Positions 5,401 to 32,659 of a DNA stretch of 32,659 nt are shown here, piece after piece. The translations under genes and the position numbers were made by a program. The stretch covers positions 1 to 32,659 of IMG/VR virus record IMGVR_UViG_3300025097_000026; one strand, given 5' to 3'. This DNA is from a virus. How positions within the stretch are numbered: position 1 is the first letter of the stretch; every line of letters begins with the position of its first letter. Below the pieces are notes generated by a model. That model did no database searches and was not told the origin of the DNA. It was given only the letters and a program-made list of their open reading frames with translations.

Positions 5401-6069
5401 ATGATAAAAATTTTTAAAAATGCTATTGTTGATTGTTGGAGGGGGATTAAAGGGTACATTAATCGGAACCGTAAGGTGGAGCATAGGACTAAATATGCAG
5501 ATATTAGAGAAGATTTAAATACCGGTGATATTGTGTTGTTTTCAGGTAAAGGGCTTATCAGTAATGTGATTAAACGGTTTACCGGTTCCCCCTGGAGTCA
5601 TGTGGGCATGGTTATATGTTCGCCAGAATGGAATATGAAGCTCTTGTGGGAATCAACTACCCTGAGTAAACTCAAGGACATTACAAGCGGTGAGGCACGG
5701 CAGGGAGTACAATTAGTACCCCTGAGCGAGAGAATCAAGACGTATGAGGGCGAAGTAGGTATTAGAAAACTTCTACACACAGAGCCATTAAACAATCAGG
5801 CTCTTATTGATTTAAGGGCTGAGGTTAAGGGTAGACCTTACGAAGAGAGCAAGATTGAGTTGTTTAAATCTGCCCATGATGGATTTATGGGTGGCAACGA
5901 GGAAGATTTGTCCAGCCTGTTTTGTTCTGAACTTGTTGCTGAGGCATATCAGAGGTTAGGCTTGATTACCGAGGATACGCCAAGTAATGAATTTACACCT
6001 GCTGATTTTGGAAATTATTTTCCCTTGATTAGGGCAGGGCTTGGTAAAATTATCAAGATAGAGGCATAA
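5401..6069 (+). CDS. NlpC/P60-superfamily hydrolase, permuted (YiiX/YaeF-like)
   Basis: Predicted papain-like Cys hydrolase that cleaves peptide, amide or ester bonds, possibly in cell wall or lipids. The circularly permuted layout is clear: TGDIVLFSG (41-49), GSPWSHVGMV with catalytic His67, and FCSELVAEAYQRLGL with catalytic Cys175. The length (222) matches the YiiX group. No signal peptide is visible, so export would need a holin or another route. A weak GGGGA site precedes the start. It is a candidate lysin, but it lies outside the lysis-like block at 14675-18072, so a role in host modification is equally possible. Confidence 0.8.
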   Translation: MIKIFKNAIVDCWRGIKGYINRNRKVEHRTKYADIREDLNTGDIVLFSGKGLISNVIKRFTGSPWSHVGMVICSPEWNMKLLWESTTLSKLKDITSGEARQGVQLVPLSERIKTYEGEVGIRKLLHTEPLNNQALIDLRAEVKGRPYEESKIELFKSAHDGFMGGNEEDLSSLFCSELVAEAYQRLGLITEDTPSNEFTPADFGNYFPLIRAGLGKIIKIEA

Positions 6070-19003: not shown

Positions 19004-22000
19004 TTGCCTGTAAATAAACAACTATCTTTTGCAGCAGGTGAAGTTAATCCGTCTATTTACGGAAGGGCTGACCTGCAGAAATTCGACTCTGCTTGTAGAA
19101 CACTAAAAAACATGATTGTTCATGTTGAAGGTGGTGCAAGTAATAGGGCAGGACTAGAGTACATTGGTGCCGTCCATGACTCCACAGAGACAACACGCCT
19201 TATTCGGTTCAGGTTTAATACCGAACAAACATACATCCTGGAATTCTCCGACTTCTTCTTTCGTGTTATCAAAGATCAAGCCTATGTAATGCACTCTGCT
19301 GATACGGTCACAGCAGCTACCAGAGCCAATCCATGCGTTGTGACAATAGGCGCTCATTCATACGTTGTGGGACAAGAAGTGTTCATAAAAGATGTTGTAG
19401 GTATGACAGAGCTTAACAATATTTTTTATAGAATAAGGGCTGTAGCCGCAACCACAATAAGTCTTGAGGATATATACGGCACAGCTATAGATAGTTCAGC
19501 TTTCACTACATATTCATCGGGTGGGACGGTAGAAGTTACGCCAATATTTGCCACGCCTTTTCCACAGGCAGACTTGGCTAAATTAAAGTTTACCCAAAAT
19601 GCCGACACTCTTACCGTGGTACATCCTGACCACAATGGTATCTATGATATAACAAGGACAGCGCATGATGTTTGGACGGTATCTCAGGTGGATTTCACTT
19701 CACAGACTTCTGCTCCGACCACAGTAGCAGCGACTCCAAGCACAGCTAATACAGGATTTGTCAGAAATTATGTGGTTACGGCTGTAAATGATACAACAGG
19801 TGAAGAGAGCGTTGCGTCAAGTTCTAATAATGCAGACCATGACTTAGCTGCTGATGCGACAAGAACCAATGACGTAGCGTGGGACGATGTTGCCGGTGTC
19901 ACATGGAAGATATATTGTGATGATAACGCTTCGGGAGTATTTGGGTTTATTGGTAATGCGTCAACAAATGCCTTCAGCGACAACTTCATTACTCCTAGTT
20001 ACGATGTAACTCCTCCGGAAAACAAGAAACCAATATTCGTATTTGAAGATTTTGTCATCACCGGTGCGACTCAGGCAAGTCCCTGTGTGTTAACAATAAC
20101 GGCAGGGGGAAGAACTCCGGTTGTTGGCGATCAGGTGGATGTGTCTGCAGTTGTCGGAATGACAGAGCTTAACGGAAATACATACTTTGTGAAGGCAGCC
20201 ACTTCAACAACTATAGATCTTGAGGATAAAACAGGCACTTCTCTTAATAGTACAGGGTTTACTCCCTATAGTTCTGCCGGAGTTGCAAAGGTTTCCGAAC
20301 AGAATAAGTCTCCTAGATGTGTGACCTACCATCAACAGAGAAGAATATTTGCAGGTCCGGATGACACTCCTTCTACATTCTATACGACCAGAGTGGGACT
20401 GTTTGCAAATATGAATGTTTCTACCGTTACTCAGGCTGACGATGCGATAACATTTAATGTTGTAGCTGATGATGTTAATGAAATAAGGGATATAAAATCA
20501 CAGAAAGACCTGTTTCTCTTTACCTCGTCAGGTATATTCAGAATAACAACAGGCGAGAGCTTGGTCTTTTCTCAAACAAATATATCCTCAGAAGAACAGG
20601 AATCATGGGGGGTTAGCGATATTGAAGCGCTTAAAGTAGGTCAATCGTTCTTATATGTCCAAGACGGTGAGAGGGTTGTCAGGGACTTACAGGATACGAT
20701 TGAAGCAAATGGTTTTTCAGGTGATGATTTGACTCTCCTGGCAAAACATTTATTCAAGGAAAGGAAGATTGTTGAATGGGCTTACGCAAGAGATCCGGAT
20801 AGTGTTATATGGTGTGTAATGGATGATGGCACAGTTAATGCCCTTACATATCTCAGAAAACATCAGATTTGGGCATGGACACATCATGTTACCGATGGCT
20901 TGTTCAAGTCTATTGCAGCAATACCGGAGACTACTAGCGAATATGGAGTATATTTTGTGGTTGAGCGTACAATCGAAGGTACTACTGGAAGCGCCAGTAC
21001 GATGAAATATGTGGAGAGGTTGAAGAACAGGGATGTTTTAGATATAAAGGATTCATTCTTTGTTGATAGTGGTTTAAGCCTGGATGTTCCTATTACTATA
21101 TCCGGAGCGACTGCTGCTTCACCGGTAGTTGTTACTGCCACAGCGCATGGTCTTACCGATGCAGATTTTATTGATATTGCCGAAGTCGAGGGTATGACAG
21201 AACTTAACGGCAACAGGTATAAAATAGGAAATAAAAATACAAATAGCTTTGAATTATTTAACAGGACACAGAGCGTATATACAATCACGGCAGCCTCAAG
21301 AGCCGATCCTTGCGAGATTACTATTGGAACACATACTCATACCGAAGGTCAGCAGATAACGATTTCTGGTGTTGTGGGAATGACCGAGTTAAATGGCAAC
21401 ACTTATCAGGTTAATACTGTTACGTCTACTACAGTTACGCTCAAGAGCATAGCAGGTGTTGGTACGGATTCATCTGGATTCACGACTTATGTATCCGGTG
21501 GGAAGGCAGAGATTGATGCAGATATAGATGGAAGCGCTTTTACTGCTTATACAACTGGAGGCGAGGCAAGATTGGTTGCTACTACTTTATCAGGATTACA
21601 GCATCTTGAAGGGGAAAGCGTGTCTGTGCTTGCTGATGGTGGCACCGTACATAATCCCCTGGATGCTGATTTAACTACAAAGACGGTATCGGGTGGAGCT
21701 ATAACGATTGCAGATGGAGCATCAAGAGTTCATATAGGCTTGCCATATACGAGTGATTTAGAGAATATAGGGGTAGACCTGACTTCCCTAAATGGCTTTG
21801 GTGATGCTCTAGCAAGGAAGAAAACTATACCAACTGTCAAAATAAGGGTGCAGGATTCGGCAGGTATTAGGATTGGACCGAATGCAGATGAGTTGGAACC
21901 ATATAAACCTGAAGGAGTTGAGGCTAATGAAGGACCAACACTCTTGAATCAGGTCATAGAAAAAACCATGCTCAATGTGTATGACCACGATGGAACAGTA

Positions 22001-22078
22001 TTTATCAGGCAGATTGGACCGTTACCGATGACGATTTTAAGTCTATTGCCGGAGGTACAGGTACAGGAAAATGAGTAA
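19004..22078 (+). CDS. Tail tubular protein B (T7 gp12-like nozzle) with inserted repeats
   Basis: 1024 aa; forms the tail nozzle for DNA exit. The N-terminus (NKQLSFAAGEVNPSIYGRAD, then RTLKNMIVHVEGGASNRAG) is the gp12 signature. The TTG start is supported by GGAG (18993-18996); no suitable ATG lies near. T7 gp12 is about 794 aa; the extra length comes from E1-FCCH-like repeat domains around GMTELNG at residues 101-178, 351-430, 697-857 (broken) and 758-837 (nested inside the third), and from an Fn3-like part (about 240-335). The stop overlaps the next start by 8 bp. Confidence 0.92.
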   Translation: MPVNKQLSFAAGEVNPSIYGRADLQKFDSACRTLKNMIVHVEGGASNRAGLEYIGAVHDSTETTRLIRFRFNTEQTYILEFSDFFFRVIKDQAYVMHSADTVTAATRANPCVVTIGAHSYVVGQEVFIKDVVGMTELNNIFYRIRAVAATTISLEDIYGTAIDSSAFTTYSSGGTVEVTPIFATPFPQADLAKLKFTQNADTLTVVHPDHNGIYDITRTAHDVWTVSQVDFTSQTSAPTTVAATPSTANTGFVRNYVVTAVNDTTGEESVASSSNNADHDLAADATRTNDVAWDDVAGVTWKIYCDDNASGVFGFIGNASTNAFSDNFITPSYDVTPPENKKPIFVFEDFVITGATQASPCVLTITAGGRTPVVGDQVDVSAVVGMTELNGNTYFVKAATSTTIDLEDKTGTSLNSTGFTPYSSAGVAKVSEQNKSPRCVTYHQQRRIFAGPDDTPSTFYTTRVGLFANMNVSTVTQADDAITFNVVADDVNEIRDIKSQKDLFLFTSSGIFRITTGESLVFSQTNISSEEQESWGVSDIEALKVGQSFLYVQDGERVVRDLQDTIEANGFSGDDLTLLAKHLFKERKIVEWAYARDPDSVIWCVMDDGTVNALTYLRKHQIWAWTHHVTDGLFKSIAAIPETTSEYGVYFVVERTIEGTTGSASTMKYVERLKNRDVLDIKDSFFVDSGLSLDVPITISGATAASPVVVTATAHGLTDADFIDIAEVEGMTELNGNRYKIGNKNTNSFELFNRTQSVYTITAASRADPCEITIGTHTHTEGQQITISGVVGMTELNGNTYQVNTVTSTTVTLKSIAGVGTDSSGFTTYVSGGKAEIDADIDGSAFTAYTTGGEARLVATTLSGLQHLEGESVSVLADGGTVHNPLDADLTTKTVSGGAITIADGASRVHIGLPYTSDLENIGVDLTSLNGFGDALARKKTIPTVKIRVQDSAGIRIGPNADELEPYKPEGVEANEGPTLLNQVIEKTMLNVYDHDGTVFIRQIGPLPMTILSLLPEVQVQENE
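19304..19537 (+). repeat. Nozzle FCCH-like repeat 1
   Basis: Residues 101-178 of the nozzle: TAATRANPCVVTIGAH, VVGMTELNN, TTISLEDIYGT, SSAFTTYSSGGTVEV. Same order of blocks as repeats 2 and 4. Confidence 0.85.
20054..20293 (+). repeat. Nozzle FCCH-like repeat 2
   Basis: Residues 351-430: TGATQASPCVLTIT, VVGMTELNGNTY, TTIDLEDKTGT, STGFTPYSSAGVAKV. Diverged from repeat 1 at DNA level, so not a very recent copy. Confidence 0.85.
21092..21574 (+). repeat. Nozzle repeat 3 interrupted by nested repeat 4
   Basis: Repeat 3 N-part is residues 697-756 (SGATAASPVVVTATAHGL, EGMTELNGNRY, NSFELFNRTQ). Its expected C-part, DGSAFTAYTTGGEARL, appears only at residues about 842-857. Between them is a complete repeat 4 (758-837: TAASRADPCEITIGTH, VVGMTELNGNTY, TTVTLKSIAG, SSGFTTYVSGGKAEI). 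Confidence 0.75.
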
Positions 22079-22535
22079 ACAGGTAGAAATAAAAAAATCA
22101 AAACAGGAAGATATAATGCCAATAGCCCATAGAATGAGAGAGGCAGATGTAAGGGAAATATGGGCTTCTCATAGAACAACACCTTATAAGGCGTTGCTTA
22201 ATGGAATTAAGGCAGAGGGTAGTTGTTGGACCATATTTGGTGATGGCACTCCTGAAGCTATGATTGGTATAGTGAGGATGTCATTACTTAGTAATAAAGG
22301 GTATGCCTGGATGCTTGGCACCGATGTTTTAACTGAGGATAAGAGGCTCTTTATGCGGCTTACAAAGGAGTTATTTGATGATGTGGTAGAGGGGTATAAT
22401 TACCTTGAAAACCATGTGTCTACAGAAAACAGGTTATCTTTAAGGTGGATACAGGCTATGGGGTTTACTGTTGAGGATAAAATTATCAAAAGGAATGGTG
22501 TTCCTTTTAAGAAATTTTTTATGGAGATAAAATAA
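22071..22535 (+). CDS. T7 gp13-like (GNAT-fold) protein
   Basis: 154 aa. The pattern of the phage Gp13/DUF2833 family: HRMREADVREIWASH near the N-terminus, AMIGIVRMS strand, GYAWMLGTD, and a C-terminal NRLSLRWIQAMGFTVE block resembling GNAT acetyltransferases. In T7 the equivalent is needed for virion maturation around the ejection proteins. Catalysis is unproven. It overlaps the nozzle stop and is followed directly by the gp14-like gene, the usual order. Confidence 0.75.
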   Translation: MSKQVEIKKSKQEDIMPIAHRMREADVREIWASHRTTPYKALLNGIKAEGSCWTIFGDGTPEAMIGIVRMSLLSNKGYAWMLGTDVLTEDKRLFMRLTKELFDDVVEGYNYLENHVSTENRLSLRWIQAMGFTVEDKIIKRNGVPFKKFFMEIK

Positions 22536-23275
22536 TGTGTGAACCTGTCACGATAGCGATTGCCGGTGCTGCAATAGGCGGTGGTCTTGGATATGCTGCC
22601 ACAGGAGATGCAAAAGGCGCTCTTATTGGCGCTGGTTTAGGCGCAGCAGGTGGATACTTTGGCGCATCAGCAGCAGGTCTAGGAGGAGCTAATCCATTAA
22701 TAGGTATGTTAAGTCCGTTAGATGCAGCAGCAGGAGCAGGGGGGTTGCTTGGAACCGGTATTTCTGGCACCACCGCCTTAACTGGTCTATCACTCGTTGG
22801 TACTGGTCTATCCGCATTTGGTATGTTTAGTAATTCAAGGTCGGTAGCTAGAGCAGCAGACTACAGAGCAGGTATAGCTAATAACAATGCGTTAATAGCA
22901 GAGCAGAATGCTATATTAGCTCTTGAGAAGGGAGTGGCTGATGTTGAAGATAAACGATTAGAGACTAGGCAGAGAATGGGGTATGAGAAGACTCGGTTGG
23001 CTTCTATGGGGTTCTTTGTTGGCGAGGGCAGTTCGGTAGAGATATTAACCGATACAGCCATATTGGGAGAGCTAGACGCACTCAGAATAACAGCAGATGC
23101 AGAAAACAGAGCCAATAACTATAGACAACAGGCAGGAGATTTTAGAACAATGGCAGATTTAAACGCATTCGCATCACAGAGTGCTAAGACAGCCGGCAAT
23201 ATTAACACCGCAGGATCTCTAATCACCGGTGCTGCGAATGCCGGTACAACCTTTTTAGCGACAAAACCAGTATAA
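22535..23275 (+). CDS. Internal virion protein B-like (T7 gp14-like)
   Basis: 246 aa. The first 100 residues are Gly/Ala-rich and hydrophobic (repeated GxGLGAAGG-type segments), suited to membrane insertion. The second half is a helical coil (NNNALIAEQNAILALEKGVAD, KRLETRQRMGYEKTRLASMG, then GEGSSVEIL) matching the virion core family of podophages. In T7 the counterpart forms the outer-membrane pore during ejection. Starts in TAATG overlap with the previous gene. Confidence 0.8.
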   Translation: MCEPVTIAIAGAAIGGGLGYAATGDAKGALIGAGLGAAGGYFGASAAGLGGANPLIGMLSPLDAAAGAGGLLGTGISGTTALTGLSLVGTGLSAFGMFSNSRSVARAADYRAGIANNNALIAEQNAILALEKGVADVEDKRLETRQRMGYEKTRLASMGFFVGEGSSVEILTDTAILGELDALRITADAENRANNYRQQAGDFRTMADLNAFASQSAKTAGNINTAGSLITGAANAGTTFLATKPV

Positions 23276-25266
23276 TGGCAATAAAAATACCAAGTGTAAA
23301 AGCGCCTGATTTAACAAGAAGAAGTCATAATATTGATATACCAGCAGGTGCATTCGGTGAGCCTGTGGGAGCGGCAATAGGAAAAATTGGAGCCGATACA
23401 GCCGATGCTGCCAATAAGGTAAATATAGCCTTGGCTAGATTCGATGAACGCAGAAGCTCTACAGAGGCTAATAAGGCATTTAAGGATTTACCCATTAGTG
23501 AGGGTAATGCGTTAATCGCTGCCAAGAAAGATCCGAACAGGAACCTGCCGACATTTCAACCGGACTATACTGCTGCTCAGGATAAGCGTAATAAGGCAAT
23601 CATAGATGGATTGTCCGAGAGAGCGAAGCCGAAGTTCATGCTTCAATATAACACCTTACAGAAGAATCAGGCTTTGGATGCTATGAACTGGGCGTTAGGG
23701 CAAGAGGTTGTTGAGGGCAGGAACGAAATGAATGAGGCTGTTCTCAAGTTAACATCGACAGCTTCTACGGTTGCTGATACTATATTGCTTAAAAAACAGG
23801 TAGAAGATAAAATCTTTGAAGCTCATATTAATAATGTTCTGCTTGATGGTAGGATGCGAGCAAAAGATCCAGATGTCGAGGCTCTGAAGCAGTTCCGGCA
23901 GATTGATTTCAACAAAGCAAGCTCTTTGGTGTTTAATAATCCTGCACTTTTAAGGAAGATGATAAAAGAGAATGCCTTACCCCATCTGAGCGATACACAG
24001 AAAAAAGAATTTATGAGCCAATCTTTTACGTCCACAGCCGGAATTGAATATAGGGCGAAAGTTTCTGCTCTTGATTTCTATGGTGAACAGAATGCTATGT
24101 TTAGAAAAAAGCTGAATGAAGGGTTGTTGGTTGGTGAGGCAGGATATAATGAACTCAATGTAGCCGTACAATCTTTACAGCCTCAAGTTGACGCAGGTGA
24201 TGAAGACGCAGCAACACAACAGTCACTACTAACATTGGTTAGGGACAGTCTTTTTGAGACAGACGATGTAACACAGGCATCAAAGGATAAAAATGCCTTG
24301 ATGAACAAACTGGCTTCTATTAGAGCAACAAAATTAATCAAGGAAATGGGATTGGCAGAGAATACAACCCCTGACAAAGGGCAGCAGTCAGTAACGTATG
24401 TGCATCTTCTTGGCAGATTCAATGAAATGGTTGTAGAGGTAAAGAGAAGAGGTAAAGATCCAGAGTTCCGGTTAAGAGAAAAAGGTACTATTACAAGGCT
24501 TAGTGATATACTTGACGTTCAGGCTGATAGCGAGGTATTTAGACAAAAAGGATTGGTCTCAAATGAAAAACATAATGCGATCATAGAAGATCTGTTGCCA
24601 ATAGTCAGAGATAAAATAGAGGATGACTCCTTCCTAGAAAAGAAAAATATGCTTGGTACTAAAATCAAGGTGAAAGCAGATATATATTCTGCTGCGTTTA
24701 CTCATGTTAAAGAGACATTGGCAAAGAGTCCTGAGTTAAATACTGTTGTTAATCAGGCTGATGCTATGTTATTTGCATATCAGATTGCAAGGACCACAGA
24801 CAAGCAAGAGGAAGCTGATGCTTTTAAGCGCAGGGAGGAAATATTCAAGGCTGGAGACAGAGGTTTAAAAGAACTATATCGACAGCTTATTCCGGAGATT
24901 AATCATTTGACAGATGACGAGATCCCAAACATGATAATAAAAACAGAGGAAACGGCTGACCGGACACCGGTACCAGTATTTAAAGTACCAACACAAGCAG
25001 TTATAGATGTAATGAAGGCGAATCCAAATAATGCAAATACTAAGAAAATATTCATCGAGAGATACGGACAAGACCAGTTTGATGCGATAACCGGTGCCCT
25101 AAGAAGAGGTATGTTTAAAGTTGAACCAACACCGGCTGAACTGCATGAGTTAGGACAGGCGCAAGCCGGTCAGGATGCAGATGCTAAAAGGGAATTTATC
25201 GACACACATGGACAGGGTTGGTATAATTTCCACACAGGTAAACCAGATGATCATAAGGGTATTTGA
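23275..25266 (+). CDS. Internal virion protein (T7 gp15-position ejection protein)
   Basis: 663 aa, mostly helical and charged, no signal peptide. Its position after gp14-like and before the giant protein, and its length (T7 gp15 is 747 aa), fit the second ejection protein. N-terminal IPSVKAPDLTRRSHN and a Gly/Ala part are followed by long helices. No clear transglycosylase motif is seen. It starts in the TAATGG overlap. Assignment rests on position and composition. Confidence 0.65.
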   Translation: MAIKIPSVKAPDLTRRSHNIDIPAGAFGEPVGAAIGKIGADTADAANKVNIALARFDERRSSTEANKAFKDLPISEGNALIAAKKDPNRNLPTFQPDYTAAQDKRNKAIIDGLSERAKPKFMLQYNTLQKNQALDAMNWALGQEVVEGRNEMNEAVLKLTSTASTVADTILLKKQVEDKIFEAHINNVLLDGRMRAKDPDVEALKQFRQIDFNKASSLVFNNPALLRKMIKENALPHLSDTQKKEFMSQSFTSTAGIEYRAKVSALDFYGEQNAMFRKKLNEGLLVGEAGYNELNVAVQSLQPQVDAGDEDAATQQSLLTLVRDSLFETDDVTQASKDKNALMNKLASIRATKLIKEMGLAENTTPDKGQQSVTYVHLLGRFNEMVVEVKRRGKDPEFRLREKGTITRLSDILDVQADSEVFRQKGLVSNEKHNAIIEDLLPIVRDKIEDDSFLEKKNMLGTKIKVKADIYSAAFTHVKETLAKSPELNTVVNQADAMLFAYQIARTTDKQEEADAFKRREEIFKAGDRGLKELYRQLIPEINHLTDDEIPNMIIKTEETADRTPVPVFKVPTQAVIDVMKANPNNANTKKIFIERYGQDQFDAITGALRRGMFKVEPTPAELHELGQAQAGQDADAKREFIDTHGQGWYNFHTGKPDDHKGI

Positions 25267-25287
25267 TTTAATTATTATGGGAAAATA

Positions 25288-28200
25288 ATGGTTACACCTT
25301 TAAAAGAAAAAGATCCATTTTTGGGGTTAGATCCACAATTCGACAACGCTGGTCAGGCTGTAGACTCTGATCCGTTTGCTGGACTAGATCCACAATTCGA
25401 CAACGCTGGTCAGGCTGTAGACTCTGATCCGTTTGCAGATTTACTTCCGGAGAAGGAGGATAGGTTTCAACAGTTGTTGCCTAGGGGAAGTTCTGCTCCA
25501 CCTCAAACTTTTGATAAAGGCACAAGGGACGAGCTTAATGCTCTTAATGGTAATGTCGGCAACAAGGAATATATGTATATTCCTGGGGAGAACGTAGTTA
25601 CATTCAATGAATTTGGCATCAGCAAAGCTATAGAAATATTAAGCAGGGCTTATAGTACAGGTAATTTAGGTTCGGAGCGAAGCCAGTTGGGACACAGAGC
25701 TATGAACGGTGATACAAGCGTTGAGGCACGAATAAGCGAGATAGACGATTTACTGCGAGGCTTTGATCCTCTTGCCGGTATGGTGCCTCCACCTCTTACA
25801 GAGGAAGAGTTGAGATATCCACAGCGACCAGGATTTGTTGGTCCTGACCAGTTTGAAAGAATCAATCAATTCTCTCAACCACCTAAAGACGGCATCGCTA
25901 CTTGGCTTGGTAAGACGGTATTTGAGGAGCTTGCGAATATAAGAGGTTATATGCGTTCAGGTTTAATCAAAGGATCTGCGACAGGAGGAGCGATGTTACT
26001 GGCAACAGCTATACCAGGACCTCATCAGGCTGTCACCGGACCTTTATCTATACCTCTGTTCGGTGCAGGATTTACAGCCGGTGCAATAGAGTATGGTTAC
26101 AGGCAAATGTCCGGAGAAGCATACCTTGAGTACAGGGCTTTCACAGATGACGAAGGGAATAAACTTCCAGACCATATAGCCAAACTTGGCGCTGTTATTA
26201 TGGGTGGCTTTGGTGCCGGCATGGAATCAATATCTATGGGGATGTTGTTCAAGATATTGCCTGGTACAAGACAAGTATTCAAGAAGGCTGGTTTTAAAGT
26301 TAGTGATGCTCTTAAAATACCAAGTTCTACTAAACTTATAAAAGAGTTCTTGTTTAATATGGCTCAGATTTCACTTACTGAAGGTGGTACTGAGGGCGGT
26401 CAGGAGATATTACAGATAGGTATTGGTGAGATACTGAAGGCTAATGCTGATGGAGAGTTTGAGGCTATTGACTTTGCAGATGCAGCAGCAAGAGTAGCTG
26501 AGGCATCAGTTAAAGGTGCCGTTGTCGGTACAGCGCTTGGTGGTGGAGCTACTGCTGCAAGTGTTGGTGTTGATGTTGCTCAAGGTAAAGGCGATTTAAT
26601 AAAGACAATGCAGTCTATGAAGGAAAATCAACAGGAGTCTACTGAATTGTTCTTAGAGCAGCGAGCCTTAAAAGAAAAGGGAAAGGATCTCTCTAAGAAG
26701 AAGAAGTCAAGGATGGCTGAGCTGGAGGGTGAAGGGACCAGATTACAGAAAGAATTTTTTGAACAGTTACAGGCAGAGCAAGACAAGCAGTTAAAGAGTG
26801 ACCTCAAGAAAGGCATTGAAGCCTTAGAAGATGTTACACCTGAAGACCTTACACCGGAAGTAACTGCTGAGGCAGTTGAGAAAGTTGAAACAATTACAAA
26901 AGGGGTGCAGGTTGAAGAAGAAAGCGGAAAAATATCCAGATTACAAGAAGGTGTCAGAAGCACTCAGGAGGCTGGAGAAGGAGGAAAATTTACCTTTGAG
27001 GGAGAGGAAAAAGAACATGAAGTCGGTGGACTGTTAGAATTTCAAGGATTTCACGGTACATCAAAGGAGGGATTGCCAGTTAAAGATGTTACTAATTTCG
27101 GTGGATTTCATGCTGGTACTGAAAAAGCAGCACAAGACCGAGTTGGGCTAGAAGCGGAATCAACAAGGGCATCCACAGGCAAGAAAATTAAACAGAATAT
27201 CATTCCTGTTAATATTAAACTGAATAAGACATTAGGTACGCTTGAAAACCCAATAGATGAAACAACTTTATTTACAATAGTTAATTTAAAGAACAAATTA
27301 AAAGAACTTAAAGACCAAGGATTTGATGGAATAATCTATAAGAACATCACAGAAGATTCAGGATCTATAAGTATTCTTTCTTTTTCTAGTGAAAATGTAA
27401 GTGAGTCAGAAGTCTCAAAGGTTCCGGAAGTTGACACACTTGCGAAGGTTGAAGAAGCCTTACAGGGTATTGCAAAGTCACCTGAAGTTAGAGCCTTACT
27501 TATCAAGGCACGAATCGCATTCCTTGAAAGAGAAACCAAGAATATAGACATACGGATAGATGCACTCAATACAGAGATTGCTAAGGCTAAAGCGAACAGG
27601 AAAAACACCAAAGGGCTTGAGTCAAAGAAGGAAAAGCTCTTAAAGAAGAGTGCAAAAGTAGAGGCAGACTTAGACAATACTTTTATATTGGGATTGGCTA
27701 ATGATTTAAAATTGAGTAAGAAGGCTGCTCCGTTGAAGGTCAAGGCAGAGAAGGCTGAGAATATAGAAGAACAGAGGGTAAATGAAGCAAAACTTATTTT
27801 AGAGGAATTAGGACAGGGTGATGAGCCACAGAATACAACTATTGTAAACGAGGCAGGTGAACAGGTGCCTGTGTTGACACAATCCACAAACCCTGCATTC
27901 CTATCCGGCAGGGCTGATCTTGAGGCTGATCCACTTGCTCTTAATGTGGTAGGTCTTAAACAAGGTGGTAAAAAACCTAATCGTAGAAGCAAAAAAGCCG
28001 TGATGAATGCAGTCCAAAGAATAATAAATGGGAAGCCAGCGCCTAAAGATAAGGCTCAGGCTGCGCTACATAATAGAATATTAGATCTTATTGAAGACAG
28101 GCTTGCAGGTGAACAGCCTCGATTCGTGCCAGGTACCGGTCAAGCTGAAGAGTTTGCGAAGGGCTTTGCGGAGCCTCTTCCTGAAATATTATCTCAGGAC

Positions 28201-31200
28201 GAGAAGATAAAGAATTTATTTGATTCATTAAAGAATAAAGAGTTATTGGCTCAGGAACAGATAGAGCCGGAGGCAATAGTTGAACTGACAGCCGGTAAGG
28301 TACAAAAGCTGGAAGAACAGAGCCTCAAGGCACAGGAGAAAGCGCTGAAGAAAGGGTTTACTCAGGGTGCTAAAGCAACTAAAGATAAAATTAAACAGGC
28401 GAAGAAGAATCTAAGGGACCTGTTGAACTCAACTTCTCTGCCACCTGAGAGCAAGAACAAGATAATGACATTGGCTAAGATTGATAAGAAGATACAATCT
28501 GCCGATGGATTCGTTGGAGCTTTAAAGGAAATCAAAAGTCTAATTAGAACTGAGTTTGAAAGATTAGCATTTAAAGAGCAGAGTACCAGGCTTACTAAAT
28601 TATTAAGCGCAAAGAGTATTAATCCAAAGGTGGTAAGTGGTGTCCGTAAGGGTAAGTTTACTGCTGATATACAGGAGAGGTTAGAGGAGTTAAGGAGCCT
28701 ATTAAAGAAAGGGCGCAGAGTCGATCCTGAAACTGGCGAGGCTCTTACAGAGTTTTCTGAAGCGGAAATGGCAGCGCTTGGAGCAGACATTGAAGCATTG
28801 GAACAGTTTAATAACTTGGGTGAACTTTATGGTAATAAAAACAGAGCCGTTCCAAATGAAAAAACTGGTATTTCTCCTGCTCAAGCAGAGCTTAACAGTA
28901 GACAATTAAAACAGCAGGAAGATGGGATATTCGATCCGCTTGGTAATGCTATCTTAGAGTTCCGAGCTAATCCTAAGAATTTTACAAGCGCACAATTAAA
29001 GAAGATTGCAGACGAGGTAGAAGGCTTAATAACTGAAGGAAAGAATGCTGCTAAAGAGCGTGTGAATGGACGTAAGCTGCGGAATGAGGGTTTAGCGTCT
29101 AATGCAGCAGATACTATAAGGACTGTTGAGGAGCAGTTGTTGATTGATGACAATGCTTTACAACAGAGGATAATAGATTTTAACAAAAAGATAAATAATC
29201 TAAGGCGTTATGCTGCTGAGAACTGGCAGGGACAAGTTGATATAGCCTTTAATCTAAAGGGAGTAGACAACGACCTTATTATAGAAGCTCTTAATATAAG
29301 GGAGGAGCTTGCCGAAGCAATAAGACTGCAGAATCAGTTTGGGAATGACTATCGTGACCGTATTAAAAGGTCGATTGGTACTGTAAGCGATATAGTTTAC
29401 AACAAAAAAATGATAAAAGACCATAAGCGTTTTAATGCCGGCAAATTGTTAATTAAACAAGGCTTTAGGGATGCAAGCGAGGGTGATAAGTTTGTTAATG
29501 CAAAAGGTCAACCAGTAGTCCTTAATCTCAGTATAGCTGAGATAAGAAATTATAAGCTGACAGAGCAACAGACCAAATCACATGAAACACTATTTGCTGA
29601 GGATGGTAATGCCTTTGTGGAGACAACAGAAGATAAGATAGGAACTCTTGATGAACTGTACCAGCTTTTAGATGAAAACGACTTGGCTATTATAGAGGCA
29701 AGGCTTGATATGATGGAAGAGTTATACGATTTACACAATGAAGTATATAGAAAGCTCAATGGTATAAACCTTAAAAGGAATGATGTTGGTGAGGGAAGGT
29801 ATTTCCCCTGGAGTCGTACAACAGGAGGAAGGGATGTTTTAGGGATTGACAATGACCAGGCTATGAGGGCAACTGTAAACCTGTCTTCACATAAAGCGAG
29901 GTCAGCGAATAGGTTTGAATTTAAACCAACAAGTGACGAAGCTGTGATGCAGCGTCATCTATTTGAGGTCAGTCATTATATAGCAACGGCAGATAAGTTG
30001 ACAAACATAAGGCAGATAATAACTAATACTAAATTAAAAAAAGCCATTGAATCCAAGTTTGGCAAAGGATTGTATAGTCAAATGGCTGAGACAGTAACAG
30101 ATTTTATAAGGGGAAGAGTCGAAAGGGGTAAGGCTCTTGATAAAGCCATCAACGAAATGAATTCTCGCTTTGCTGCTTCTGTGCTAAGACTCAAACCTAT
30201 AATAGGAGTTAAGCAGTTGTTATCTATACCTGCATACTTAGAAAAAATGCCGGTTCACGCATTTATAGCAGGGGAGCTTGATTTTATTGTAAAGGCGGTT
30301 GACGATCTTGCTCATGGCAGGAAGAACAGGGCTATAGAAATATTAAAAGAGGTTCCGGCTATTGCCAACAGAGCGCCTAACCCTGAAGTAGCGATTGCCA
30401 ACATAGCACAGGACATTCAGAACATAAAACAATCGTTACAGAGAGGGACTAGATGGAGTAAGCTCATGGATGCCAATATTAAGATAGGTGATATTGGTGC
30501 TATCTATGCTGGTGGATGGGCTTTGTATAAGTATTCTCTTAGTCAAGGTAAGACAAAAGCTCAGGCTCTAAAAATAGTACAAGATACCACGCTTGACAGG
30601 CAGCAGTCTCAAGCGTTGAATCAGTTGTCACCCTTACAGAGAGGTCACTCTTTGGGTAGGTCTTTGACTGCCTTTTCATCGGCACCGTTGTCATATTTAA
30701 GGGCAGAGTTTCAGGCTCTTCGGCAGGGATTTAGGCGTAAGATTTCTCCGTACCAGGCTGGTAGGCAGTTTGCTATTTACCATTTTCTATTGCCTATGAT
30801 ATGGCAATTTGTGGCAGATGGATTTAAGGTTGATAAAGAGCATTTGTGGAGGGCTGCATTTTTAGGAAACCTTAATGCTATTGCTTTAATAGGTGATCTT
30901 TTTCAGGCTTTTTATAATATGGCTTTTGAGTTAAAGGCTTTTGACGTTGAGGCTATACCGTTTCTGGCGTTCACAGATGATATGATTAGAGGGATGGGAG
31001 ATATTATGGAGAGTGGGTTAGAAATAGATAGCGAAGAGTTCTATGATGCTGTTAAAAGATTTGCCTCTGCTTACGGCAAGGTTACTCGCAAGCCAGTACA
31101 ACAGTTCTTTAATATATATGAAGGCATTAGTGAGATTGCCGATGATGGACTCTCTAAAGAGCCACTTTTACAAACATTAGGAGCGCCTCCGTTAAAAAAT

Positions 31201-31203
31201 TAG
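25288..31203 (+). CDS. Giant internal (ejection) protein with ART-like domain
   Basis: 1971 aa, in the T7 gp16 position. Visible parts: a perfect 19-residue tandem repeat at 13-50 and further DPFAxL/P units; hydrophobic Gly/Ala segments near 222-265, 301-322 and 410-432; long coiled coil (about 440-540); an ADP-ribosyltransferase/PolyVal-like domain at about 583-708 (GFHGTSKEG, FGGFHAG, IIPVNIKLNKTL, GFDGIIYKN); coiled coils to about 1480; and a C-terminal region (about 1480-1970; NSRFAASVLRLKPIIGVKQ and following) like other large phage ejection proteins. No lysozyme motif recognised. It probably enters the host envelope or cytoplasm on infection. The Shine-Dalgarno is weak (GGGAAAA). Confidence 0.8.
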   Translation: MVTPLKEKDPFLGLDPQFDNAGQAVDSDPFAGLDPQFDNAGQAVDSDPFADLLPEKEDRFQQLLPRGSSAPPQTFDKGTRDELNALNGNVGNKEYMYIPGENVVTFNEFGISKAIEILSRAYSTGNLGSERSQLGHRAMNGDTSVEARISEIDDLLRGFDPLAGMVPPPLTEEELRYPQRPGFVGPDQFERINQFSQPPKDGIATWLGKTVFEELANIRGYMRSGLIKGSATGGAMLLATAIPGPHQAVTGPLSIPLFGAGFTAGAIEYGYRQMSGEAYLEYRAFTDDEGNKLPDHIAKLGAVIMGGFGAGMESISMGMLFKILPGTRQVFKKAGFKVSDALKIPSSTKLIKEFLFNMAQISLTEGGTEGGQEILQIGIGEILKANADGEFEAIDFADAAARVAEASVKGAVVGTALGGGATAASVGVDVAQGKGDLIKTMQSMKENQQESTELFLEQRALKEKGKDLSKKKKSRMAELEGEGTRLQKEFFEQLQAEQDKQLKSDLKKGIEALEDVTPEDLTPEVTAEAVEKVETITKGVQVEEESGKISRLQEGVRSTQEAGEGGKFTFEGEEKEHEVGGLLEFQGFHGTSKEGLPVKDVTNFGGFHAGTEKAAQDRVGLEAESTRASTGKKIKQNIIPVNIKLNKTLGTLENPIDETTLFTIVNLKNKLKELKDQGFDGIIYKNITEDSGSISILSFSSENVSESEVSKVPEVDTLAKVEEALQGIAKSPEVRALLIKARIAFLERETKNIDIRIDALNTEIAKAKANRKNTKGLESKKEKLLKKSAKVEADLDNTFILGLANDLKLSKKAAPLKVKAEKAENIEEQRVNEAKLILEELGQGDEPQNTTIVNEAGEQVPVLTQSTNPAFLSGRADLEADPLALNVVGLKQGGKKPNRRSKKAVMNAVQRIINGKPAPKDKAQAALHNRILDLIEDRLAGEQPRFVPGTGQAEEFAKGFAEPLPEILSQDEKIKNLFDSLKNKELLAQEQIEPEAIVELTAGKVQKLEEQSLKAQEKALKKGFTQGAKATKDKIKQAKKNLRDLLNSTSLPPESKNKIMTLAKIDKKIQSADGFVGALKEIKSLIRTEFERLAFKEQSTRLTKLLSAKSINPKVVSGVRKGKFTADIQERLEELRSLLKKGRRVDPETGEALTEFSEAEMAALGADIEALEQFNNLGELYGNKNRAVPNEKTGISPAQAELNSRQLKQQEDGIFDPLGNAILEFRANPKNFTSAQLKKIADEVEGLITEGKNAAKERVNGRKLRNEGLASNAADTIRTVEEQLLIDDNALQQRIIDFNKKINNLRRYAAENWQGQVDIAFNLKGVDNDLIIEALNIREELAEAIRLQNQFGNDYRDRIKRSIGTVSDIVYNKKMIKDHKRFNAGKLLIKQGFRDASEGDKFVNAKGQPVVLNLSIAEIRNYKLTEQQTKSHETLFAEDGNAFVETTEDKIGTLDELYQLLDENDLAIIEARLDMMEELYDLHNEVYRKLNGINLKRNDVGEGRYFPWSRTTGGRDVLGIDNDQAMRATVNLSSHKARSANRFEFKPTSDEAVMQRHLFEVSHYIATADKLTNIRQIITNTKLKKAIESKFGKGLYSQMAETVTDFIRGRVERGKALDKAINEMNSRFAASVLRLKPIIGVKQLLSIPAYLEKMPVHAFIAGELDFIVKAVDDLAHGRKNRAIEILKEVPAIANRAPNPEVAIANIAQDIQNIKQSLQRGTRWSKLMDANIKIGDIGAIYAGGWALYKYSLSQGKTKAQALKIVQDTTLDRQQSQALNQLSPLQRGHSLGRSLTAFSSAPLSYLRAEFQALRQGFRRKISPYQAGRQFAIYHFLLPMIWQFVADGFKVDKEHLWRAAFLGNLNAIALIGDLFQAFYNMAFELKAFDVEAIPFLAFTDDMIRGMGDIMESGLEIDSEEFYDAVKRFASAYGKVTRKPVQQFFNIYEGISEIADDGLSKEPLLQTLGAPPLKN
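25328..25436 (+). repeat. Perfect tandem repeat, 57-bp period
   Basis: 25328-25379 and 25385-25436 are identical over 52 bp; the period is 57 bp (19 codons), so the frame is kept. It encodes two copies of GLDPQFDNAGQAVDSDPFA (residues 13-31 and 32-50) at the N-terminus of the giant protein. Identity at third codon positions indicates a recent duplication. Confidence 0.95.
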
Positions 31204-31252: not shown

Positions 31253-32659
31253 ATGACAATATCAGCAACAATACCCACAAGACACAATTCATCAGGGAAT
31301 GGATCAGCAACATCATTCTCTTATACCGTGAAGATCGCTGCGTCTTCTGATCTGAAACTGGTACATACCACTTCTGCCGGAGTGGAAACCACACTTGTCA
31401 ATAATACTGACTATACTGTGAATGGAGCCGGTGATGCAGGAGGTGGAACAGTTGACTTCCCTAAAGGCGGTTCATCGTATAGTACGCTTGCTTCCGGTGA
31501 GAAGTTGGCAATCATCTATGCGTATCCGATTGAACAGACTACTGATCTTCCGAATACAGGTAGAATTTTTAATGAAAGTGTTGAGGACCAGCTTGATTAT
31601 ATCACGGTCTTAAATAATCAACATGAAGAAAAGTTTGACCGAGCCGTTTTGTTGACTGAAGGTTCCACGATGACAGGCTTAACCATGCCTGAAGGTGCCG
31701 ATGCTAATGCTCGTAAGAACAAGGCGATTATTTGGAATGAGGCTGGCAATGACTTTGAACTTGGCTCTTCAATCGGTCTTAACAGGGGTAATTGGGCAAC
31801 TTCTACTGCTTATAATGCCAGAGACATTATAAAGGATACCAGTAATAATAACATATATTGGTGTAATACTGACCATACATCAAGTGGTTCCCAGCCTATC
31901 AGTTCCAATACCGATGTGGCTAAATGGGATTTGATTGTTGATGCAGCAGCAGCGGCTACATCTGCAACTGCGGCAGCAACTTCGGCAACGGCAGCAGCAG
32001 CTTCCGCTACGGCAGCAGCAGCTTCTGAAACAGCAGCAGAAACGGCTGAAACCAATGCCGAAACAGCAGAGACTAACGCAGAAACAGCCGAGACTAATGC
32101 CGAAACAGCAGAAACTAACGCTGAAACAGCAGAAACCAATGCAGCCAGTTCAGCTACGGCAGCAGCCAGTTCAGCTACTTCAGCAGCTTCATCTGCAACA
32201 TCAGCAACTTCTTCTGCTTCAACAGCAACAACACAGGCAAGTAACGCATCAACTTCAGCAAGTGCTGCATCTACATCTGCAAGTAATGCAAGTACATCTG
32301 CAAGTAATGCAAGTACATCTGCAAGTGCAGCGAGTACATCTGAAACAAATACAACGGCATCAGTAGGTGCTTTGGCATGGAAATATACATTTGACAGTAG
32401 TACAACAATGGCTGATCCTGGTGCAGGGGAAATAAGATTTGATAATGCTACCGTAGCTTCAGTTACTAATCTGGCTATGGATGCAACTTCGGCAGATACT
32501 GGAAACCCTGATGTATCTGATTTAATTGCAAGCATAGATGATGGCAGTAATGATACGCATGAAGGCTATGTAACTATACGGAAATCTGGCACACCTGCCA
32601 CCTTTGCCTGTTATAGTGTTACAGGGGCTGTAACGGATAGCACAGGATGGTTGCAAGTA
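31253..32659 (+). CDS. Tail fibre or spike protein, N-terminal part (runs off window)
   Basis: Starts ATG 31253 after AGGAGAAAA and is open to the end of the window (469 codons, incomplete). The N-terminal domain (TYTVNGAGDAGG, LAIIYAYPIEQTTDLP, NTGRIFNESVEDQLDYIT) resembles the T7 gp17-type virion attachment domain, where FxxxxxExxLDxxT is conserved. ARDIIKDTSNNNIYWCN (about 190-206) is a carbohydrate-binding-like module. Then an Ala/Ser/Thr/Glu/Asn coiled-coil stalk (about 230-373) and the beginning of a beta domain. It binds the host surface; specificity lies downstream, outside the window. Confidence 0.88.
   Translation, partial: MTISATIPTRHNSSGNGSATSFSYTVKIAASSDLKLVHTTSAGVETTLVNNTDYTVNGAGDAGGGTVDFPKGGSSYSTLASGEKLAIIYAYPIEQTTDLPNTGRIFNESVEDQLDYITVLNNQHEEKFDRAVLLTEGSTMTGLTMPEGADANARKNKAIIWNEAGNDFELGSSIGLNRGNWATSTAYNARDIIKDTSNNNIYWCNTDHTSSGSQPISSNTDVAKWDLIVDAAAAATSATAAATSATAAAASATAAAASETAAETAETNAETAETNAETAETNAETAETNAETAETNAASSATAAASSATSAASSATSATSSASTATTQASNASTSASAASTSASNASTSASNASTSASAASTSETNTTASVGALAWKYTFDSSTTMADPGAGEIRFDNATVASVTNLAMDATSADTGNPDVSDLIASIDDGSNDTHEGYVTIRKSGTPATFACYSVTGAVTDSTGWLQV
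31944..32370 (+). repeat. Low-complexity stalk repeats in the tail fibre
   Basis: Degenerate short repeats built on GCA/TCA/ACT codons, including five to six ETAETNA units (about 32038-32138) and several STSASNA units (about 32265-32340). They encode a 140-residue Ala-rich helical stalk. On the other strand and in other frames the same repeats create long meaningless open frames. Confidence 0.9.

What the first reader, a model, noticed from the sequence alone, without database searches (positions are those of the whole stretch)
27031..27410. ADP-ribosyltransferase/PolyVal-like domain inside the giant ejection protein
The block order HGTS..., FGGFHAG..., ...IIPVNIKLNKTL..., GFDGIIYKN..., then a final strand matches the ART-PolyVal type domain of phage polyvalent proteins. 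If the protein enters the cell with the DNA, this would deliver a host-modifying enzyme at the first moment of infection. Active-site residues beyond H and the FxxxFHAG stretch cannot be confirmed by eye.
Basis: partly seen in the sequence, partly recalled or inferred. Interest (0 to 1): 0.6.

Follow-up and report, generated by a model that had tools for sequence, protein, structure and literature searches.

The report
ADP-ribosyltransferase domain in phage ejection protein
A marine T7-like virus carries, inside the giant protein it probably injects with its DNA, a divergent but real copy of a known enzyme family that attaches ADP-ribose to host molecules; related viruses carry other effector domains in the corresponding protein.

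Summary
Residues ~583-706 of the 1971-aa protein 25288-31203 form an ART-PolyVal (PF18760) domain. Pfam alone is inconclusive (E 0.049, below cut-off). A profile of 57 phage domains built without the window scores it 60.9 bits, against 7.0 for the best of 2000 shuffles. All 58 aligned members individually match PF18760. AlphaFold2 (pLDDT 84) gives the split-sheet topology, and the leading Foldseek PDB matches are ART-superfamily enzymes (AcrIF11, NatT, tankyrase, ParT), though their E-values are weak.

The carrier sits in T7 gene order (gp11-12-13-14-15-[giant]-17), an order kept in nearly all relatives examined. In the nearest relatives a different, clear-cut ART-PolyVal domain (51.7 bits) occupies the same slot. 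Nine of 20 related giants carry ART-PolyVal by Pfam; others carry RNase-like, acetyltransferase, kinase or zeta domains. So the giant is probably a polyvalent protein with exchangeable effector domains.

Caveat: the window domain has the subtype's invariant H589, H608 and E689, but the strand-5 Asp of the published H-Y-D site is Ile694. That position varies in the subtype (Asp in 39 of 50). Activity, delivery and target are unshown. This is a new member of a known kind, in a little-described carrier.

The parts
25288..31203 (+). giant gp16-position protein, 1971 aa, carrier of the ART domain
   Evidence: ORF and translation; T7 gene order; same order in relatives
27034..27405 (+). ART-PolyVal domain, about aa 583-706
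   Evidence: profile score, Pfam membership of the aligned subfamily, AlphaFold2 and Foldseek
27052..27054 (+). H589, strand-1 His of the HGT motif (column H23 of A2), invariant
27109..27111 (+). H608, strand-2 His of GFHAGT (column H42 of A2), where the published family site has Tyr
   Evidence: published site from PMC5512222
27319..27405 (+). motif 3: GFDGIIYKNITEDSGSISILSFSSENV with flanks, strand 4, loop and strands 5-6
27352..27354 (+). E689 of YxNxxE (column E123 of A2), invariant in 58 aligned domains and not part of the search pattern
27367..27369 (+). I694, at the position of the usual strand-5 Asp (D in 39 of 50 readable domains)
25312..25425 (+). two 19-aa repeats (DPFxGLDPQFDNAGQAVDS) at the N terminus; three copies in the near-identical L002
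18393..19001 (+). gp11-like tail tubular A
   Evidence: phrog_394, E 2e-43
19004..22078 (+). gp12-like tail tubular B with FCCH repeats
   Evidence: phrog_376, E 2e-159; PF16190
22071..22535 (+). gp13-like internal virion protein
   Evidence: phrog_308, E 2e-34
22535..23275 (+). gp14-like internal virion protein
   Evidence: phrog_418, E 2e-17
23275..25266 (+). gp15-position protein, 663 aa; no family convincingly detected
   Evidence: position; homologue in L009 upstream of its giant
31253..32659 (+). gp17-like tail fibre, cut by the window end
   Evidence: phrog_13893, E 1e-25

Best explanation
The domain is an NAD-dependent ADP-ribosyltransferase of the ART-PolyVal family, of the subtype with His in strand 2 and YxNxxE in motif 3. 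It is inserted in a variable slot of the gp16-position core protein of a T7-like podovirus. Shown here: family, fold, slot, a different ART type in the same slot of sister phages, and the polyvalent character of related giants. Inferred: the giant is packaged in the head core and ejected with the DNA, as T7 gp16 is; the ART domain thereby reaches the new host and ADP-ribosylates a host molecule (or, as AcrIF11 does, a defence protein) before phage genes are expressed. E689, possibly with D690, in the loop before strand 5 would supply the catalytic acid in place of the missing Asp at 694.
For: Pfam's only match of the domain is ART-PolyVal, sub-threshold. Profile score 60.9 bits, controls at most 7.0; N-half control. 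58 of 58 aligned members match PF18760. 40% identity to L102. AlphaFold2 pLDDT 84, pTM 0.75. The leading PDB folds are AcrIF11, NatT, PARP/tankyrase, RES and ParT; 15 viral models at E up to 1e-3, several named ART-PolyVal. Sister phages carry an over-threshold ART-PolyVal domain in the same slot. ART-PolyVal in 9 of 20 related giants, with other effector domains and LPD22 in others, against 3 of 200 bacterial genomes of one phylum. Gene order as T7. Invariant H589, H608, E689 kept. Catalytic acids in a loop and a non-canonical H-F-H-D site are documented for AcrIF11 (PMC12421852).
Against: Pfam score is below the curated cut-off (14.8 of 31.2). PDB fold E-values are weak (best 0.027; TM at most 0.51). 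The Asp of the published H-Y-D site is Ile694, and the aromatic two residues later is Ile696. No virion proteomics; no detectable homology of the C-terminal core to T7 gp16. The model's alignment was built from ART homologues, so the fold is not an independent discovery. No target is known.
Confidence: 0.62

Rival explanations
1. The domain is a degenerate ART fold (pseudoenzyme) that has lost chemistry and serves as a binding or structural module of the core protein.
For: Ile at the strand-5 Asp position and Ile for the aromatic that usually follows; sub-threshold Pfam score.
Against: The three residues invariant in the subtype are kept. Other subtype members, including L102 and the bacterial-genome copy L196, also lack Asp there. 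The sister-phage slot holds an over-threshold ART.
Confidence: 0.22
2. The domain is active but consumes NAD (NADase) or modifies nucleic acid or small molecules rather than host proteins.
For: NatT, an NAD-consuming toxin to my knowledge, and RES toxin folds are among the best PDB matches. In the literature read, the targets of ART-PolyVal domains are predicted, not measured.
Against: AcrIF11, the top PDB hit by E-value, modifies a protein; the sequence does not discriminate.
Confidence: 0.25
3. The giant is not ejected; the ART domain acts in the producing cell or within the capsid.
For: No virion or ejection data for this phage; no sequence link of the core to T7 gp16.
Against: Conserved T7 core gene order in nearly all relatives examined; polyvalent-associated domains in relatives, for which co-injection is proposed (PMC5512222).
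Confidence: 0.12
4. The resemblance is a chance match of short motifs.
For: Sub-threshold Pfam score only.
Against: Profile scores far above shuffles, independent N-half signal, 40% identity to L102, predicted fold.
Confidence: 0.02

Closest known systems
ART-PolyVal (PF18760), ADP-ribosyltransferases of polyvalent proteins (Iyer et al. 2017, PMC5512222)
   Same: sequence blocks, predicted fold, residence in a large phage protein
   Different: His instead of Tyr in strand 2 and Ile instead of the strand-5 Asp; scores below the Pfam cut-off on its own
N4-like virion RNA polymerase with ART (Roseovarius Plymouth podovirus 1, CBX87992.1, in PMC5512222)
   Same: ART domain fused into a giant podovirus protein thought to enter with the DNA
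   Different: no RNA polymerase module found here; carrier is in the T7 gp16 position
T4 Alt
   Same: head-packaged, injected phage ART (as reviewed in PMC5512222 and PMC9503650)
   Different: Alt/VIP2 clade with R-S-E site, separate protein
AcrIF11 (6KYF)
   Same: best PDB fold match by E-value; phage ART with a non-canonical H-F-H-D site and loop acids
   Different: small stand-alone protein; no demonstrated sequence link
T7 gp16
   Same: gene position between gp15 and gp17
   Different: no detectable sequence homology of the C-terminal core; no lytic transglycosylase domain recognised by Pfam in this giant

Membership tests
ART-PolyVal (PF18760) | Pfam score over the curated cut-off (31.2 bits) | tested here: not met
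   14.8 bits, E 0.049; met by the sister-phage domain in the same slot, 51.7 bits
ART-PolyVal (PF18760) | alignment with members that themselves match the family | tested here: met
   A2: 58 of 58 match PF18760 at E up to 0.1, best 2e-22; profile without window 60.9 bits
ART-PolyVal (PF18760) | strand-1 His | tested here: met
   H589, invariant
ART-PolyVal (PF18760) | strand-2 Tyr of the published H-Y-D site | tested here: not met
   H608; His is the rule in this subtype, whose members still match PF18760
ART-PolyVal (PF18760) | strand-5 Asp of the published H-Y-D site | tested here: not met
   I694; Asp in 39 of 50 subtype members; invariant E689 nearby. Filed as a divergent member on profile and fold, not as a holder of the published site
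ART-PolyVal (PF18760) | ART split beta-sheet fold | tested here: met
   AlphaFold2 plus Foldseek; PDB E-values weak but top hits ART, viral hits prob 1.00
ART-PolyVal (PF18760) | NAD-dependent ADP-ribosyl transfer | not testable with these tools
   needs assay
polyvalent proteins | several disparate effector or LPD domains in one protein | tested here: inconclusive
   only the ART recognised in the window protein; LPD22, PBECR5, GNAT, kinase, zeta in relatives
T7-like ejected core protein (gp16) | gene position gp15-gp16-gp17 | tested here: met
T7-like ejected core protein (gp16) | sequence homology to gp16 | tested here: not met
   hhalign prob 0.1 for the C-terminal core
T7-like ejected core protein (gp16) | presence in virion and ejection into the cell | not testable with these tools
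   needs proteomics and infection experiments

The most novel reading that the evidence does not exclude
The gp16 position of T7-like podoviruses is a general effector-delivery scaffold: a conserved ejected core protein with exchangeable enzyme domains (ARTs of different active-site types, RNase-like, acetyltransferase, kinase, zeta), swapped on short time scales in natural populations and acting on the host before any phage gene is expressed; the ART here uses an H-H-E rather than H-Y-D site.
Probability: 0.4. Interest if true: 0.65.

Novelty: new member of a known kind. Interest (0 to 1): 0.42.

Why it matters
Phage ART-PolyVal domains are known from computation, but I found no measured target in the papers read. 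A T7-like architecture gives a tractable carrier: T7 ejection is well studied, so whether an enzyme domain carried by a core protein reaches the cytoplasm and works there can be tested directly. The ART type differs between sister phages in the same slot, and two nearly identical phage genes (L007, L009) differ by one ART-like cassette, which points to rapid exchange.

Tried and rejected
Chance motif match: rejected. Direct relatives in isolate phages by tblastn of the domain: none significant. PDB by sequence: none. C-terminal core as LPD38 or T7 gp16: no support. dN/dS between window and L002: only 19 differing codons, none in the ART, too few. The His/YxNxxE coupling looks strong but is partly biased, because most His-type domains were collected with a GxDGIxYxN pattern and an H-containing filter; it is reported as a lead only. 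The extra L007 cassette has no relatives in viral contigs beyond itself and only a weak DRAT match (E 0.076), so its ART nature is unproven. No significance test of effector frequency in giants was made, because the giants were not a random sample.

Full report
What is there. The stretch lies in ORF 25288-31203 (+), 1971 aa. Gene order around it is that of T7: tail tubular A (phrog_394), tubular B (phrog_376), gp13-like (phrog_308), gp14-like (phrog_418), a 663-aa protein in the gp15 position, the giant, then the tail fibre. The T7 annotation has the same order. Tubular B resembles those of pelagiphages and of Vibrio phage MZH0603. The host of the window phage is unknown.

The domain. Pfam on the whole giant shows no ART; on the excised domain the single match is ART-PolyVal, E 0.049, below cut-off. 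The nearest other phages, L007 and L009 (88% identical in tubular B), carry between homologous flanks a different domain that matches ART-PolyVal at 51.7 bits, E 2e-13. A DNA pattern for G[FY]DGI[IV]YxN drew 120 viral loci; most of those read carry HGT ... GxHFGT ... DGIVYxNxxE ... SYIxF blocks like the window's. A profile of 57 non-redundant ones without the window scores the window domain at 60.9 bits; 2000 shuffles reach 7.0 at most. Because the search pattern favours motif 3, the half before it was tested against a profile without N-terminal selection: 28.0 bits, shuffles at most 9.2. All 58 rows of the alignment match PF18760 individually, the window row at E 0.067. The closest relative found is in L102, a 2045-aa protein next to genes that look like capsid genes (my reading, not tested) in another phage: 40% identity over 128 aa, E 1e-29.

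Structure. AlphaFold2 with that alignment gives pLDDT 83.6, pTM 0.75, core residues mostly above 90, and the strand order expected for the split ART sheet. Foldseek against PDB: E-values are weak (best 0.027), but the leading matches are ART-superfamily proteins, AcrIF11 (6kyf), NatT (prob 0.97), PARP4, tankyrases, RES-Xre toxins and ParT. Against viral models: 15 hits at E up to 1e-3 with probability 1.00, several named ART-PolyVal-like. The alignment fed to the model consists of ART homologues, so this supports the assignment without being independent of it.

Active site. Iyer et al. give His (strand 1), Tyr (strand 2), Asp (strand 5) for ART-PolyVal (PMC5512222). The window has H589, H608 and, at the Asp position, I694. 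In the subtype to which it belongs, columns for H589, H608 and E689 are invariant; the two His were partly favoured by my filter, E689 was not. The Asp column holds D in 39 of 50 readable members and I, T, N, K, E or P in others; L102 also has I. Domains with an aromatic residue in strand 2, including those of L009, L029, L040, L193, L197 and L201, lack YxNxxE (L009). I infer, without proof, that this subtype uses an H-H-E arrangement. AcrIF11 shows that an ART can work with an H-F-H-D site and loop acids (PMC12421852).

The carrier. A search with an alignment of giants brought 23 loci. Gene order gp12-13-14-15-giant-17 is recognisable, as far as the contigs reach, in 18 of the 19 loci checked. 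In 20 giants Pfam finds ART-PolyVal in 9 (the window, being sub-threshold, not counted), LPD22 in 12, PBECR5 in 3, GNAT acetyltransferase in 3, and Kinase-PolyVal, zeta toxin, GGDEF, LPD3 and LPD23 in one each. Isolate relatives have LPD22, LPD38 or ddrB-ParB. ART-PolyVal occurs in only 3 of 200 bacterial genomes of one phylum (one of the three is the genome the search was centred on). The related giants are therefore polyvalent proteins in the sense of Iyer et al., in the position of the T7 ejected core protein. The C-terminal core has no detectable homology to T7 gp16, so ejection rests on gene order and on the polyvalent precedent.

Exchange. Window and L009 share flanks but carry ARTs of different type in the slot. 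L007 and L009 are 99.8-99.97% identical in the gene on both sides of a roughly 340-bp in-frame difference, which in L007 encodes a second ART-like stretch; its nature is unproven.

Literature. ARTs in polyvalent proteins, including one fused to a podovirus N4-type RNA polymerase, and ART frequencies by phage morphology (3% of siphoviruses and podoviruses) are published (PMC5512222, PMC9503650). Searches for ejection protein with polyvalent protein, and for internal virion protein with ADP-ribosyltransferase and podovirus, found no paper in the held library; that library is incomplete.

Verdict. It is a new member of a known kind; the more interesting part is the gp16-position slot with exchangeable effectors.

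Noticed in passing
window 25312-25425; L002 N terminus: 19-aa repeat DPFxGLDPQFDNAGQAVDS at the N terminus of the giant, two copies in the window and three in the otherwise near-identical L002; L003 has the same length surplus.
   Followed up: partly
L007:16972-17286 versus L009: Nearly identical giant genes (99.8-99.97% DNA identity) differ by a roughly 340-bp in-frame cassette with VFHGTEQLQ...; ART-like N half, weak DRAT match, no relatives found in viral contigs.
   Followed up: partly
giants in L023-L042 (alignment A5): Other giants in the same gene position carry PBECR5, GNAT, Kinase-PolyVal, zeta toxin and, in one, GGDEF domains; which locus holds the GGDEF match was not resolved.
   Followed up: partly
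window 5401-6069: 222-aa protein matching phrog_1128 (enoyl-CoA hydratase/carnitine racemase-like, E 2e-14), unusual in a small podovirus.
   Followed up: no
window 23275-31203: No lysozyme or transglycosylase domain recognised by Pfam in the gp15- and gp16-position proteins, although relatives L016 and L017 have one annotated in the gp15 position.
   Followed up: no
L102:4543-10680 (-): 2045-aa protein of another phage type, with the closest ART relative of the window and the same Ile at the Asp position.
   Followed up: partly
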